Below, one piece after another: positions 1,422 through 53,830 of a DNA stretch of 55,124 nt. The notes under the pieces were generated by a model, which searched no databases, was not told the DNA's origin, and saw only the letters and a program-made list of their open reading frames with translations. The stretch is taken from contig AZLU01000095.1 in the NCBI GenBank assembly GCA_002224055.1, positions 1 to 55,124 of the forward strand. The letters run 5' to 3'. The position numbers and the translations under genes were made by a program. How positions within the stretch are numbered: position 1 is the first letter of the stretch; every line of letters begins with the position of its first letter. This DNA comes from Pezizomycotina sp. ARF18. Taxonomy: Eukaryota; Ascomycota.

Positions 1422-4007
1422 TCACCAAATTCGTCATCCTCCTCCGCTCGGTCTGTTGCGGCCTGTCATAACAGAATCCATTCCTAAGGGAAGCGGCGGA
1501 GCTCGCTGGCGTCTGAATCGCCCGCGTTACGAACGGGTCGTCCGCGAGGACGGATTCCCCGTTTCGTCTCCGCTTGTTATTTCTCGTTACTACTGTGCAT
1601 GTGTACCTGCTCGCGGCGTCGGCGTTATCTGTCGGCACCGCCGCAGCACCGGGTAGCCAAGGCGTGCAAGGGGTGGCGCCTTGTCGGTTTGAACGGGGTT
1701 TTTGGCGTTGGAATGCTGGATGATCCGGATGGCGACGGAGTCGCCGGGGAAATGCTATGGGAGGGCATTTTGTAACGGATTTCGGTGTCTTTTCGAGGGA
1801 GATGATCTGATGGAGGGCCTTACACGACGACCGACGGCGTCGCCGGGGCAAAGCCAGGCCCAGCCCAACGAAGTTCCCGATATCCTTCCCGTGTCTTTGC
1901 GATGCCTGAGACTGTAATCTCGAGGAGCGCGCACCCTACTAACCCTGAAGGCGTTCTCGCATGGGAGAACGGAGGGAAGCAACATTGTAAAAGTTTTCGC
2001 GCGATAATTCCCGGATAACGATCGATGATGTTTATTTTTTTTTTAAACCCTTTGAATCCTTCTCTTTTCTAATATTTTATATGCCGTTGAATTCTTCCTC
2101 CCGCGATCAACCAAAGCCTCCAAATCGAATCACTTTCTCTTCCTATATATATCTCCTGAACCCTTATCGTTTATTTACTTAGCTTTTTTGTGTTTTGTTT
2201 TGATTGTTGAGAATTTTTGTGATGAGGGGGTTTTTGGAACGATGGTGCGAAATGAGTCGATTTTGTTTTTTTCCACCTTCGCTCGGTTGTTCTTTGACGC
2301 CTCGTCCCCTCAAATGTTCGCCGAAAAGGATCGCTCAACCAGATGTATTCGAATCCTCGTATGTCCTTTTAATGAGTTTGCGATGCGAATGTACCTGTCG
2401 GACCTGAAGGGATGGATGATGTGGACGAAGGAAGTTTTGATCAAGTAACGATGGGGAATGAAACGGTCGAAATTATTTGGGGATGATAAAAGAGTAATAA
2501 AAAATATATATTAAAAGTGGAAAGGAAATTGAAAATGAGGGGGGGAGGGAAAGGAGGGAGAAAAGATAGAGGGAAAGAGTGATTGATTATTTCGGGGCGA
2601 GAGGAATTGTTAAGGGGGAAAGTGGGCGAGCGTATTCCCCCTCGGGAGCAAGGAGGGAAATAATTATTATTATTTAGTAGCCAAAAACTATTTAAATATT
2701 CAAATAAGAAATTTATAAATTATAACACACACACACACTCAAATCCTAAGGAAAAGCAAAGGAATTTGCCCCACTTTACTTAGCCCACCGCCCACTTCCT
2801 ATCAACCTAACCCGAATCCAGAAAACACCACTCTGCCTTCTTTGGGACTCTTCGAAAAGGGAATACGCGTGTGAATTTTGGCCTAAGTGTTTACCGCCCA
2901 AGAAAGGGTCTCCACCGCTCTTGAGAGTTCCTCAATTTCATTCTGTTTTTTTGCTCAAGAGCTCAACATCATTAGAGGTCAGAACCAACACGAAGGAAGG
3001 AGAAACGATTTCATGTCTTTGTTTTTGAAGCCAGTAGCCATCGTGAGACGCGTCAGTTACGTGCTAAAAATGGGAATTGCGAAGGAAAAGGAACATTGAT
3101 ATGGCAATCATAGGTTCGTTTGGTACCATTTCCGCGCCCAGACCCTGAATCCTAGAGAATAAACAAGGTACCAACAAAATCCTCAAGAAGGAAAGAGGGG
3201 CCAGAGATGGATAACAACGGAAAGAATATCGTCAAAGCGAGAAGAGAAAGGGGAGGGTAAAAAAAGTGCAACTTCGACCACGACCACCATCATTGAAGCG
3301 AATCATACGTTTATGTCATGTCTCTCACTGCGAAAAGCTACGAGGATCCCTAGCTAATGATTTGCGATCTATTTGCTAAGATCATTCGTAGGTACGGCGC
3401 TGTACATACATCGCGAGCCTCATAGGGTTCTCGTGTGTGTATGTACTTTCCATTGCACATTCGTCTCTCCTACGAACCAGAAGAGAGAAAGAAAAACTTT
3501 GAGGATCATCCACCACTTCTCCGATTGCTCAAGGCAGCCAGGAACAGGTTCGTTTGACGAGCGCATGTAGATTCCGTAGGCAAAAAGTCCGATTCCCAGC
3601 TTCCTATTTCTGACGTCAAAAATTGGGGGGGACAACAAAACGGGCTGCTGACCCTTCCTTATTCGCGAAGGAGGATTTTCATCCCATCTTTTTTTTTTGT
3701 GTTCGGAATTTGAGATTCCGTAAATAGCAACCAATTCCTTTTATTATTTTCCGTTTTTTTTGGTTGTTTTGATTTCGCTTAGGAAAAACGACGCGTTTTA
3801 TTTTTCACAATTGCAGAATCGGGCAATATTCGATTCTCTACGCGTTGTAACACGTTTTTTTTCTGTCTTTTGCTCTGCCCTCCCTCTCAGCCGTACAGGC
3901 AATCAGATTCGTTATTATCCTTCGTCGTGTGACCTGTCAAAGCCACAGGCGGTTTCAAATTAAACAACTCCTCAACGGCGAGATATCGATAAAGGTTACG
4001 TCTCCCT

Positions 4008-29676: not shown

Positions 29677-31522
29677 CTATGTTCTGTAGTCTCCGTTCTA
29701 TGGTAAAAAAAGAAAAAGTTAGCCTGGATTCTCGACTGCTATTCTATACCAGATTTGGAGACATTTCAAGGGAACTTTTTTCCAGATTAACTTACAATCG
29801 TAACGTATCTAAAGAAGAATCAACAATTATATTAGCAAAATGATCTAACTTGTCTCAAGAATAATGATATTGATATACGTAACGGGAAACATACTCGTGT
29901 GAGAATCACAGGTGTAGTAAACGGCTTCTACCCGGCGCCGGTTCCCATGTTTACTTTAATCTCGAGGTCTTCGTCCGCGAGTATCTCGCTCTACAACATT
30001 GAAGTTCAGATCAGTTATCTTAGTTTTCTTATACATTCTTTGAAGCGTGATTGTGATATAGGAAAGACACTTACAGCTCTGCTCTCGTCGATGTTTTCTG
30101 GCTCGCCGTTGACGAGCAGTTTGAGCTCCTTGCTGCCGTCCTTCGGCACGAACGAGACGCTGGTCTTTGTCGGTTCGACTGATACGCCAGAGTAGCCGGT
30201 AGCGCAGAGAATACGTCCCCAGTTTGCGTCACCTGGAGACGAAAATTGTATGGAAAACCCCCAGTGTTATTGAAGACATATTGGCTTTTCCCTCGAGATT
30301 ACAGAAAAAATGGGGGGGGGGGGGGGTTACTTACGACCGTAGAGGGCCGTTTTAACGAGAGGTGAACGAGCTATTGTAGAAGCGATTTGTTTCTGAAAGA
30401 GGAGGCGATTTGTTTAGTTTTAATACATGTCAAAAAAAAACAATATCAGGTGAGTGTACGAACCGCATCTTCATAGTTCTGCGCATCCGTAACCCGAACC
30501 GTGACGAACTTCGTAGCGCCTTCACCGTCACGAACCACCAGCTTAGCCAGCTCCGTCGCAAACTCCGTGACGACTTCCTTGAGCTCCTCGAAGCCGGTAG
30601 CGCCGACGTCCACGGGCTTCGTCGACTGATCCGCCGCGGCGCCGTTGGCGAGCAGCGCCACGGTGTCGTTGGTGCTCATGTCCCCGTCGACGCTGATAGA
30701 ATTGAAACTCCTATCCGCCGCGTACGTGAGTATCTCCTGGATCGCCCTGGGAGTCGCGGGCGCATCCGTCGCCATGAAGCCCAGCAGTGTGGCCATGTTC
30801 GGGTTATCATCCCCGCCCCCTTCGCCATACCCGCTATGCTGTAAGTTTCCCAGGGCAGCACGGCAAGCTGAAAGTTTTCGAGCGGAGTTTTGGAAACGTA
30901 TCCGTCGTGCATATCGCCTTCGCTGCGTCTAGCCAGGCTTCGTGCGACTGCCCCAGGGACGAGTGCAGCTTCGGTATCCCGTCGAGGATTTTCTTGATGG
31001 GCAGCGCTGCCCGATTACGCCCGTCGACATGACGATCGTGCTGCTCTCGCTTTCGCCTAGGAGCTCGTCAATGGTCTTGCCCATCGCCGCTGCGTCATCT
31101 AATCCTCCTTTACCCGTGACGGCGTTCGCGCAGCCGCTGTTCACGACGATGGCTCTGATACCCGCGCCTCCGCGCTCGTCTAGGGTGCTCCTGGACTGCA
31201 TCACCGGAGCGGCTTTAAAGGTGTTCTTTGTGAATACCGCGGCGGCGGAGCACGGCGCCGATGAAGCGACGAGGGACAGGTCGAGCGACTTCCCATCTTT
31301 TTTTACGCCGCAGTGGATGCCGCCGACGCTGAAGCCCTTCGGGTAGGTGCCCGAGGCGGGCACGTACTTTTGCTTCTTGGAAGCTGAAGTAGCGTCGGAC
31401 ATCCATCTTTTCCCGACGGCGGCAGCGGTTCGGTTCCGCGACGTCAGAAAATTGAGCCTAACGGGGATGGTGAATGCAGTAGCGAGCAATTTGCAACTGC
31501 GGGAGCAAGCCGAAGCAAGCAT
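29677..31522 (-). CDS. ARG7: Arginine biosynthesis bifunctional protein ArgJ (ornithine acetyltransferase/N-acetylglutamate synthase), mitochondrial
   Basis: ArgJ recycles acetyl groups in the mitochondrial arginine pathway, moving acetyl from N-acetylornithine to glutamate. Residues 1-41 form a basic leader ending near AVGKRWMS. The N-terminal part is intact: [72 protein letters not shown]. The autoproteolysis site [17 protein letters not shown] is present; by family knowledge, cleavage falls between Ala and Thr (codons at 30788-30793) and frees the Thr nucleophile. The beta chain continues with [40 protein letters not shown] and CDFSHEYVTINGDYRT. The last exons are tiny: a TACGTTACGATT exon (EYVTI) and a final NGDYRT-stop exon, separated by introns with canonical ends. 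A run of 15 G (30312-30326) lies inside an intron. Frame breaks occur near 31010, 30860, 30805 and 29930. Confidence 0.93.
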
Positions 31523-32172
31523 GGTTTTTGTTCAATTAAGCTGGTGAAGGCAATTGCCTTTCCCGCTTTCAATTAAGGATAGTAGGATGATTCAATGCCC
31601 CAAAATGTTCAAGAAAAATTGGGTTGTGCCGCCGCTTCTCGCTATTCTCGATATTTGGATGGTCGCTTGATGATGTTGGCGGAGGACAATTTATTTTTAC
31701 CTTAGAACGTGGGAGTTGAAAGAAATCTCGAGTATGGAATTCTGCATATTAATTAATGGGAGATCACAAATACCTCACAACCATCTCTATCTCAAGCAGA
31801 AGTTATATAATGCAATAATTTCAATTCCATCTGCTAACAAGGAATATGAGAACATCGGTTGTATAAAACTAGCAAGAGGTTTAAGCACTATTATTTATAT
31901 CCTTTTTCTTTACTTTTGCATTTTCAGGTGATTTTCGCCCATGTTTTCACGAAATCCAGTAAAATGGCTCACAAAACAAGTAACGGTCACTCTAGTACCC
32001 TTACGTCGTCGAAGCAACACTTCCGTCGAAATGTATCTATATTGATGATTTTCGTTCGTAGTACATAGAAATTGTAATAGTGAGAAGGGACGCATCTAGA
32101 AACGCCGTACAGAAAAAGTTGCAATGTAAAGCACAACCGCCCAAATACTTTGCTTCGCTGTAATCACGGTAC

Positions 32173-50364: not shown

Positions 50365-51260
50365 TTTCGTTTTTGTGGGACCGAATTCAACTCACCAATT
50401 CGCTCCCTCGTCTGTCCTTTCTACTAGTTCCTTCGTTCTTGTTAGTTGTCGTTCGTTTTTACATACAGCTTCTCAGGCTTTCCTTTTTGTGGGACGGAAT
50501 TCAAAACACCATCGATTCCCCCCTCTCTCATCCCTCCTTTCTGCTAGTTCACTCTTTACAGCTTTTCATGTAAGCCATCTCCACCCCCCGTGGTTATCAT
50601 TTCCGTAGAGCAAGTAAACCAATGCAATAGCTTTCACAATCTCTCTGATCGTCTTCGTGTTCGTGCTGCAAACCTGTAATCCAATGCTTTGCTTTCTTCC
50701 TTCGCTTTTGTATAAGCAATGACCGTGCTTTACCTTCCTGTACAAACCGCTTGTCCACTTCCTCCACTCTTCGTCTGCGCGCCATTGCTTCTCCGCCGCC
50801 CCTTTCTTCCTCTCTTCCTCTTATCTTCACTCTTTCCTTCATCTTCACTCTTCCTCCATCTTCCACCCTTTCCGGACATCGAAGCCCACCCACTGGAGTC
50901 ATTTGGCTACGTTCTAGTACTTTTGACTCCCTTTGCCTTCAATCAAACTGGGCCCTTCTTCCTCTTCCCCCTCTTCACAACCAAACCCCCCTTCATCCCT
51001 CATAACTATCCTTTCAAATCTCTTTCGTGTTTGTGCCGCAAATCTTCTACAGCTACAGTGCTTTTGCTTTCCTTCTTACATTGAAGCGATGGCCCCTTCA
51101 CACTCCCTTGTACATCATCCCTCCTTTACCTCCATTATCATCAGCACTTTCATGTTCGCTTTGCAAATATTCTATACTCCCCCTCCCCCTTGTGCCCTGT
51201 TGCTTTGTTTAAAACAATTCCCCCTTTTTGCTCTTCACCTTCCCTGCACCTCAAAAAAAA
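50365..51260 (+). repeat. Diverged pyrimidine-rich tandem repeat array
   Basis: At least two repeat families are visible. One unit begins TTTTTGTGGGACxGAATTCAA near 50370 and again near 50487, followed in both by a T/C-rich stretch with CTAGTTC. A second unit begins TCGTGTTxGTGCxGCAAA near 50656 and 51025, and a weaker TCATGTTCGCTTTGCAAAT copy sits near 51150. Each is followed by GCTTTGCTTTC-like and CTTGTACA/CTGTACA blocks. Copies differ by substitutions and gaps, so the array is old. Confidence 0.65.
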
Positions 51261-52310
51261 CTGTAGATCATGTCCCGGAGTACTCTGGGCCTGCGTGCGA
51301 AAGTCACTCTTCGAGCTCTTCGTTGTTGCTCAAAGGGTGACAAGCAATTGTACACATTTGCTACGCTTTACTATCCATCAATTCTTACCTCCTCTATCTC
51401 TTTACTTGTGTTCCAGAGTTGCTGAAATGTCGTGGATAGTGTGGCATAAAGTGTTTTACGCAGCAGAAGGGGGCTGCAGACAAGAGAAGTTATATATATT
51501 TGTATATAGGTTTGTTCGGTTCTTTTTTACCCTAAGAATTGCCTAGAAAAGGCGAACTCCAAAATTTCTTCAATCACATTCTGTTTCTGTTATAATCTTG
51601 CTCGTGTCCTGTACATCTTCTCTCTTTATTCTTCACTTTCACTTCCCGCTTCTAAAACTTCACCGTGTCTGTTTTGCATACGTGTGATTAGTCGGAGCTG
51701 CTCGTGCTTAAAGCATCGTGCCTCAGACTTGTCATCCATCGTGTTGTAGAGAGGCGGACATCTCTGAACTTTCTACTCTCATCTCCTCACAAGTTCGGAT
51801 GTTTCTACTTGACACTTTTCACTTTCTATCCGCGATAACCGCTTAGGCCCGTAGTGCGTATATGTTACGCCTTGCCTCCTTCTCCTTTCTCTTTTTGATA
51901 ACGATCTGAAAGGCTAAATGTCTTTCCAGACAACTTACATATATGGCTAACGAGGAACATTGATTGGCTATTTGGAATTATTTCTAAAGGTAAACCAACA
52001 TTCCCCCTCTTATCACCGTGCAATGCTTTTCATCTTGATGAGAGAACAAATAAGGATGGATTTTGAATTATCCCTTCACTTTCTGACGACACATGTGAGT
52101 ACATATAGGAAAACGAAGATGAACAGTAGTTCCTTTGAAGGTGCCATGTTACAAGGATAAGTCTCGGTCACATTCCCTCCCTCTAGGACGAACACAGGTA
52201 GGGGGATCAGAGACAGCAGGGTTTTTTTTTTTTTAGTCTCCTACCTCCTCCTTTTCTTCCCAGAAGTTCTCGACTCCAATAGCAATTGCCTTCGCGAGTC
52301 TTTCTCTCAA

Positions 52311-53830
52311 TGGCTGATCATTATTTCGCCGCGCAGGTCAAGGAGGAAGTGGGGGCCAATTTCTTCTACTGAAAGACCCTCCGAGCAGGTAAAAGGTAAA
52401 AGCATACTCTACAGTGTTTGTTTGCTCCAATTCCAAGGGACATCAATCGTTGAAAACTTTCTTCTTGCAGATGGAAGAGGTAAGCGCCAGGAAGTCATAG
52501 TCATATCCGACGACGACAACGAACAGAGCGCTCCCACCGTCAATGGTAAGAGACCTATTTTTATGCAATGTACACAAAACACAACAGTTTTGCTGATGAA
52601 AAGTCGTGATTAAATATAGAACGCAACGAGAGCAAAATTTCCGAGCGCGGACTTGCTCAAACTCATCCTCCAAAGCAACAGATGTCATCTCTGTTGGACT
52701 TCTTTAAAAATAAGTCTGGACTACTCTCTGCATCCAGCACCAATAGGGCCGTTAGCAAGTAGTCCTTTTGTTTGTAAAAGAAAATGATAGTTGAAGGCGA
52801 ACGTTCACGGTCCCAGAAGTAGCTCATAAGTATAAGTACTCCCATCCATTATTTAGAAACCAGTTCTAGAACTCACCCGGCACGCAGCCTGGCTAGGACC
52901 TCCACGAGTACGACTTCTGCAGCGACTCCCAAGCTGTCCGTGGACTCACCTTCAAAAAGATGCGGTCAAGCTTCATAGACATTTCTTGAATTGTTATTCC
53001 TTTTTTTCAAGTGGGCTTCACAAGTCAAAGGTCGTTACGATGATATCAAGGCTACATTGACGATAAGATGCCTGATATGGTTGTACGAGATCTTGTGTCG
53101 ATGTTAAATAGAGCGGTGACTCCATCCCTACTTAGGATATTCGAGAGTGGATGTAACGCTGTCCATGAGCCCTTCCATTGGGAGTTCCCGCGGATCTTGT
53201 TACCCAAGGATCAAGGAGTCTATATCGCGGTCGCAGAGAGAGGACGGAGGGATGTTGTATGCAGGTAATAACCCGATCTATTTCCTTACGAGTTTAGCGC
53301 AAACTGACATCCTTTCTAGGCGGCGCGACCGCGGGAGGTAAGAGGAGTACGCGAGATTCCCGTCCGGGTTGTACGGTCGGCTCCGACAGCATATGAATCC
53401 CACCCATCGAAAAGAGCAATCCGGAAAGCGATTCTATACTTAGGTATGGAAAGCAGGTTCGGACCGACTCGAAGCTAACATCAAGTCGCTGAAATGGATC
53501 GTCGTCGCCGAAAATACAAGCAACCAAGATAAGGGGATTGATTATTCTATACTTGAACATATTTTGATCGTAGGATTACATCTCTATCAGTCTAAGGAGA
53601 CGGATAAGATCCGGCAAGACTGCAATCTGCCAAAGTATCCAGTATATATAGGCCTAAACGATAATCTGGGTTTGGAAATGAAAATCGCAATCCCGCGATC
53701 TAAGGAGGACTCCATTAGAATTGGCAAAGATAATTACATTAAGGACAAGCCAGCTCTAGAAGCGCTGGGGTATAAGTCCAGATTCGACGACTGGGCTGCT
53801 AAGAACCCGGAATGCGAAGAAGGCAGCTGA
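52311..53830 (+). CDS. Putative GIY-YIG-fold nuclease with SUMO-interaction-like and PCNA-binding-like motifs
   Basis: I do not recognise a named orthologue. Exons read in order: an N-terminal segment with QEVIVISDDDNE (like a SUMO-interacting motif), an intron at about 52545-52619, then PPKQQMSSLLDFFKNKSG (SSLLDFF resembles a PCNA-interacting box, with Met or Gln at the first position). A conserved-looking domain follows: WASQVKGRYDDIKATL, MVVRDLVSMLNRAVTPSLLR, then PRILLPKDQGVYIAVAERED with GGMLYAG, an intron, GGATAGG, then GLYGRLRQHMNPTHRKEQSG. GVY followed by YAG, an Arg in 'YGRLRQH', and a later Glu in YSILEHILIVGLHLYQ (codon near 53555) are the catalytic layout of the GIY-YIG fold. Frame breaks near 53240 and 53360 were needed. 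The 5' start and the C-terminus (possibly continuing past 53830 into exons near 53970-54420) are unresolved. The nuclease reading is an inference from motif spacing. Confidence 0.5.

What the first reader, a model, noticed from the sequence alone, without database searches (positions are those of the whole stretch)
52311..53830. Unfamiliar GIY-YIG-like protein with SUMO- and PCNA-binding-like motifs
The gene joins a VIVISDDD acidic-flanked motif, a SSLLDFF box and a domain with GVY, YAG, YGRLRQH and a spaced catalytic-type Glu. A GIY-YIG nuclease recruited by PCNA and SUMO would be a DNA-repair or replication-fork enzyme. Known eukaryotic GIY-YIG proteins such as Slx1 have a RING/PHD-type zinc finger, which I do not see here, so this would be a different architecture.
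Basis: partly seen in the sequence, partly recalled or inferred. Interest (0 to 1): 0.75.

Follow-up and report, generated by a model that had tools for sequence, protein, structure and literature searches.

The report
Broken-frame fungal GIY-YIG-like gene pair
A fungal gene that matches no family searched here, cut into several reading frames in this assembly and present in two diverged inverted copies, probably encodes a distant GIY-YIG-type DNA-cutting domain, but its proposed SUMO- and PCNA-binding arms are not shown to belong to it.

Summary
The named motifs are in the DNA, but scattered over three frames with an in-frame stop. A diverged second copy lies inverted about 5 kb downstream, outside the window (C95:58719-59293, minus). 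Between copies, mismatches by codon position are 20/17/43 in 84 codons chosen by protein similarity and 6/9/25 in the 3' stretch, so at least the C-terminal part evolved as coding sequence. Chaperonin genes of the same assembly are frame-broken too (13 frame changes in 8716 nt): many breaks are probably sequence errors; decay is not excluded. No library gives an accepted hit. Ordered GIY-YIG blocks beat shuffles in the joined reads (2 and 0 of 2000 shuffles as good), but a frame-free scan ranks the locus only 6th in 162 kb, and hhalign is weak. In my read the second copy lacks two of four catalytic letters. The SIM-like string is rare; the PIP-like box lacks its Gln; neither has a counterpart upstream of the second copy. 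Verdict: probably a real GIY-YIG-like gene; the SIM-PIP-nuclease architecture is unproven.

The parts
52470..52545 (+). putative exon with the SIM-like VIVISDDDNE
   Evidence: frame 52470 open; strict SIM pattern once in 70,401 aa of window ORFs; donor-like GTAAGA follows at 52546
52546..52619 (+). putative intron (GTAAGA...TATAG, 74 nt) joining the SIM-like and PIP-like pieces in frame
   Evidence: read from the sequence; inference, no transcript
52620..52759 (+). putative exon with the PIP-like MSSLLDFF (M instead of Gln); TAG follows at 52760-52762
52956..53051 (+). conserved segment KDAVKLHRHFLNCYSFFSSGLHKSKV, N-terminal to the GIY-like core
   Evidence: matches the second copy; codon-position counts over 52900-53030 show no third-position excess
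53044..53264 (+). piece GYIDDKMPDMVVRDL...LPKDQGVY (GVY Tyr codon 53221-53223); the YAG Tyr codon 53258-53260 lies in the next frame
53265..53319 (+). putative 55-nt intron GTAATA...CTAG, not present at this position in the second copy by my reading
53320..53443 (+). piece with GATAGGKRSTRDSR and, in another frame, GLYGRLRQH (Arg codon 53378-53380), ending in an in-frame TAG at 53441-53443
53444..53830 (+). C-terminal piece, 128 aa: LKWIVVAEN strand, ILEHI helix (Glu codon 53555-53557), DKIRQDCNLP
   Evidence: open frame; mismatches against the second copy 6/9/25 by codon position over 53470-53620

Best explanation
This is a fungal gene of a family that none of the libraries searched here knows, present as two old inverted copies on contig C95. 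It encodes a GIY-YIG-like nuclease core with an enlarged loop between YAG and the Arg helix and a C-terminal extension. Shown: two copies, codon-position constraint in the C-terminal part, motif order above shuffles in the joined reads. Inferred: the window copy cleaves DNA by the GIY-YIG mechanism (two Tyr, Arg and metal-binding Glu), probably in nuclear DNA repair or recombination, and the second copy is altered or inactive as a nuclease. Many of the frame breaks are probably sequence errors, because chaperonin genes show them as well; recent decay may add some. The SIM-like exon may belong to the same gene; the PIP-like box is doubtful.
For: Second copy by blastn, E=1e-12 and 2e-9, 72% identity. 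Mismatches 20/17/43 in 84 codons chosen by protein similarity, aa identity 55/84, NG86 dN 0.25, dS 2.28; 6/9/25 over 53470-53620, which overlaps those blocks; binomial p 1.4e-4 and 1.5e-4. Shared by both reads: G[VI][YF], YAG, LRQH, LKWIV.AEN, ILEHI, HLYQS.E, DKI.QDC.LP. Ordered GIY-YIG blocks: 2 of 2000 shuffles reach the window read and 0 of 2000 the second copy; UvrC-only blocks 0 of 2000 and 4 of 2000. hhalign places GVY, YAG and RLRQH on the matching profile columns. Chaperonin (TCP-1/Cpn60) matches carry 13 frame changes in 8716 nt.
Against: No accepted hit in Pfam, PHROGs, NCBIfam or PDB. hhalign probability is only 4.6%, 1 of 200 shuffles scores higher, and it does not place LKWIV on the third strand. 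The frame-free scan ranks the locus 6th in 162 kb, while a UvrC locus outside the profile scores 98 against 31.6 here. The Glu block of the window read adds only 0.9 bits; in the second copy the last two blocks fall off LKWIV and ILEHI with the mixed profile, and with UvrC only its Glu block scores -6.2. In my read the second copy has F for Tyr and K for Arg. The 162-aa fold is useless, pLDDT 37.7. The frames of the YAG and R pieces were chosen with the motifs in view. Over 52900-53030 only 11 of 31 mismatches are at third positions, p 0.47.
Confidence: 0.55

Rival explanations
1. A fungal gene of unrelated fold; the GIY-YIG look is a chance order of short motifs.
For: No accepted family hit; frame-free scan not an outlier; two catalytic letters not kept in the second copy; weak hhalign score.
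Against: Both joined reads beat nearly all shuffles with blocks in order, and G[VI][YF], YAG, LRQH, LKWIV and ILEHI are shared by copies at dS about 2.
Confidence: 0.3
2. Two decaying pseudogene copies of a once functional GIY-YIG-like gene (compatible with the best explanation for its past).
For: Breaks look denser than in chaperonin genes: 4 by my count in about 815 nt against 1.2 expected, Poisson p 0.035; the second copy has several stops.
Against: Chaperonin genes are frame-broken in the same assembly; third-position bias between the copies.
Confidence: 0.35
3. Part of a Penelope-like retroelement, or a nuclear insertion of a mitochondrial GIY-YIG homing gene.
For: GIY-YIG occurs in Penelope elements (PMC1564403, passages seen), and contigs C50 and C257 hold 29 of the genome's 30 GIY-YIG matches.
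Against: None of 5 RVT_1 matches lies on C95; only two copies at the sensitivity used; no Pfam GIY-YIG hit, although the C50/C257 ones score 25-51 bits.
Confidence: 0.05

Closest known systems
UvrC/Cho-type GIY-YIG domain
   Same: Order GVY, Y.G, R-helix, L.WIV strand and a helix with LE..LI
   Different: About 12 extra residues between YAG and the Arg helix and a longer stretch before the third strand; no profile hit and no UvrC partner domain found
Slx1
   Same: Eukaryotic GIY-YIG protein outside the homing genes
   Different: No RING finger found; the genome has a separate Slx1-like sequence at C181:23113
Mitochondrial GIY-YIG homing endonucleases
   Same: Same motifs
   Different: Lies among nuclear genes with intron-like interruptions; no Pfam GIY-YIG or other accepted hit
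COG3680 (ANKLE1) and Penelope GIY-YIG groups
   Same: Other eukaryotic GIY-YIG groups listed in PMC1564403 (passages seen)
   Different: No ankyrin or LEM domain in the pieces; no reverse transcriptase match on C95

Membership tests
GIY-YIG superfamily | Recognised by the Pfam GIY-YIG profile | tested here: not met
   No hit for pieces or joined read at E up to 10
GIY-YIG superfamily | GIY...YIG motifs, central Arg and C-terminal Glu in order | tested here: inconclusive
   Window read has all four in order, 2 of 2000 shuffles as good; second copy has F and K at two positions; frame-free scan not an outlier
GIY-YIG superfamily | Alpha/beta GIY-YIG fold | tested here: inconclusive
   162-aa partial piece folded without homologues, pLDDT 37.7
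Slx1 | C-terminal RING/PHD-type zinc finger | tested here: not met
   No zinc-finger Pfam hit; the C-terminal piece has only two Cys
Penelope-like element | Reverse transcriptase upstream | tested here: not met
   RVT_1 found at 5 places at E up to 0.001, none on C95
PCNA-binding protein | Canonical PIP box Q..[ILM]..[FYW][FYW] | tested here: not met
   M in place of Q; relaxed form occurs 55 times in window ORFs
SUMO-binding protein | Hydrophobic core followed by an acidic run (SIM) | tested here: met
   VIVISDDD, only strict match in 70,401 aa of window ORFs; pattern written after the motif was seen. Linkage to the nuclease piece not shown; binding not testable here

The most novel reading that the evidence does not exclude
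A fungal nuclear GIY-YIG nuclease family separate from Slx1, recruited by SUMO (and perhaps by PCNA through a Gln-less PIP box), with a partner copy that has lost its catalytic residues.
Probability: 0.12. Interest if true: 0.65.

Novelty: new variant of a known kind. Interest (0 to 1): 0.35.

Why it matters
If it is a GIY-YIG nuclease, it adds a fungal nuclear branch outside Slx1, Penelope and COG3680 that the family libraries searched here miss, and raises the question of which DNA structures it cuts.

Tried and rejected
Relatives elsewhere: one genome-contig scan gave only a 14-residue match in a bacterium, taken as chance; two viral-contig scans and the phage collection gave none. Plasmids and metagenomes were not searched; no fungal protein collection is on hand. 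PHROGs, NCBIfam and PDB gave nothing for the joined read or its alignment. The fold of the 162-aa partial piece had pLDDT 37.7 and was not taken further. A helix-hairpin-helix idea for the second copy's IPGLGSGDVVKIHEHL was dropped for want of a Pfam HhH hit. Retroelement idea: no RVT_1 match on C95. Weak hits taken as chance: Phage_fiber_2 0.028, SigK chain in PDB 1.7, ESPR 0.11 and 0.15, DUF6513 0.28; those in Pfam are below its cut-offs. The frame-free scan also failed to bring up the genome's own Slx1-like exon (L013) among its 15 best, so it is insensitive to intron-split genes. Papers: GIY-YIG with PIP box and SUMO-interacting, and GIY-YIG with PCNA-interacting and fungal, found 0 papers; of the other searches I saw listings only, and in three papers the single GIY-YIG passage, each on mitochondrial homing genes. 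These searches do not show that the family is unpublished.

Full report
Setting. The window is the first 55,124 bases of contig C95 (150,533 bases) of a 46.4-Mb genome in 408 contigs, fungal by its Fungal_trans factor and other genes. Neighbours with Pfam hits are ordinary: Vps18, ArgJ, SecY/Sec61, ABC transporter, Fungal_trans. C95:55125-57240 reads N, 2116 bases, a gap or withheld. The species was not determined.

Observation. The motifs are present but scattered over frames. The C-terminal piece 53444-53830 is open for 128 aa and the GVY piece 53044-53268 for 74 aa. YAG lies in the frame next to GVY; a 55-nt intron-like stretch follows (53265-53319); GLYGRLRQH lies in another frame than the spliced sequence just after it; a TAG at 53441-53443 interrupts the last frame. 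The SIM-like and PIP-like pieces can be joined in frame by an intron-like stretch, 52546-52619, but TAG follows the PIP-like piece at 52760-52762, so a link to the nuclease piece needs a further intron and frame change.

Second copy. Reading the downstream sequence I saw a minus-strand relative, matched over C95:58719-59293. blastn gives two matches of 72% identity (E=1e-12, 2e-9). A degenerate pattern made from both copies finds these two places and no other in the genome at up to 3 mismatches. Protein searches with either joined read find only these two places at E up to 10; earlier searches with single pieces or DNA found only the window copy, so more diverged copies may be missed. By my reading the second copy has no intron at the place of 53265-53319.

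Coding evidence. In 84 codons in six blocks chosen by protein similarity, mismatches are 20, 17 and 43 at codon positions 1, 2 and 3, identity 55 of 84, NG86 dN 0.25 and dS 2.28 (YN00 0.25 and 1.83). The block choice favours this result. The stretch 53470-53620 of a pairwise alignment, taken whole, gives 6, 9 and 25 mismatches of 49, 48 and 50 sites; the stretches 52900-53030 (12, 8, 11) and 53044-53110 (4, 3, 5) show no clear excess (p values). So the C-terminal frame is well supported as coding, the N-terminal ones less so.

Frame breaks. TCP-1/Cpn60 matches in the same genome show 13 neighbouring pairs in changed frame over 8716 nt; two have gaps of 28-29 nt and two overlap by more than 100 nt, so 13 is approximate. 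ArgJ in the window is also interrupted between profile positions 118 and 141. Sequence error thus seems common here. The gene in question has 4 breaks by my count in about 815 nt against 1.2 expected (Poisson p 0.035), so decay is possible too.

Is it GIY-YIG? Against a 36-sequence profile (8 domains from C50/C257 of this genome, 28 bacterial; 2 of 38 fetched domains were dropped for stops), hhalign aligns GVY, YAG and RLRQH to the matching columns but puts LKWI on a later helix; probability 4.6%, score 18.98, and 1 of 200 shuffles scores higher. On the joined reads, with the mixed profile, 2 of 2000 shuffles reach the window read and 0 of 2000 the second copy; with UvrC only, 0 and 4 of 2000. 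In that test the second copy's last two blocks miss LKWIV and ILEHI with the mixed profile, and the window's R block slides to LRQHMNPTH with UvrC only. In my read the second copy has GIF for GVY and K for the Arg. No library gives an accepted hit and the single-sequence fold is uninformative. I hold GIY-YIG-like as somewhat more likely than not. The catalytic roles of Tyr, Tyr, Arg and Glu are established knowledge of the superfamily, not tested here.

SIM and PIP. A strict SIM pattern occurs once in 70,401 aa of window ORFs and not in 24,032 aa of L017 and L018. The strict PIP pattern does not match the piece; the relaxed one occurs 55 times in the window. Nothing convincingly similar to 52160-52960 lies in L017, which covers the second copy and about 7.8 kb upstream of it: best tblastx E 0.89; the best blastn match, E 0.023, is a poly-T run.

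Known families. PMC1564403 (passages seen by term search) lists the eukaryotic groups Slx1, COG3680 and Penelope besides homing enzymes. The genome has an Slx1-like stretch at C181:23113, [26 protein letters not shown] (the name is from recall). None of 5 RVT_1 matches lies on C95.

Noticed in passing
window 30446-31531 (-): ArgJ is interrupted: profile 2-118 and 141-271 match in two adjoining open frames with a stop and an unmatched stretch between, a likely sign of sequence errors in a housekeeping gene.
   Followed up: partly
window 50500-51250: Strongly pyrimidine-rich stretch, GC skew down to -0.585, perhaps a fungal core promoter.
   Followed up: no
L013 3114-3233 (C181:23113-23232): Slx1-like GIY-YIG exon of the same genome.
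   Followed up: partly
contigs C50 and C257: 29 of the genome's 30 GIY-YIG matches lie on C50 (231 kb) and C257, probably a very large mitochondrial genome rich in homing genes.
   Followed up: no
L017 about 2065-2112 (-): The second copy carries IPGLGSGDVVKIHEHL, which looks like a helix-hairpin-helix motif, without a Pfam hit.
   Followed up: partly
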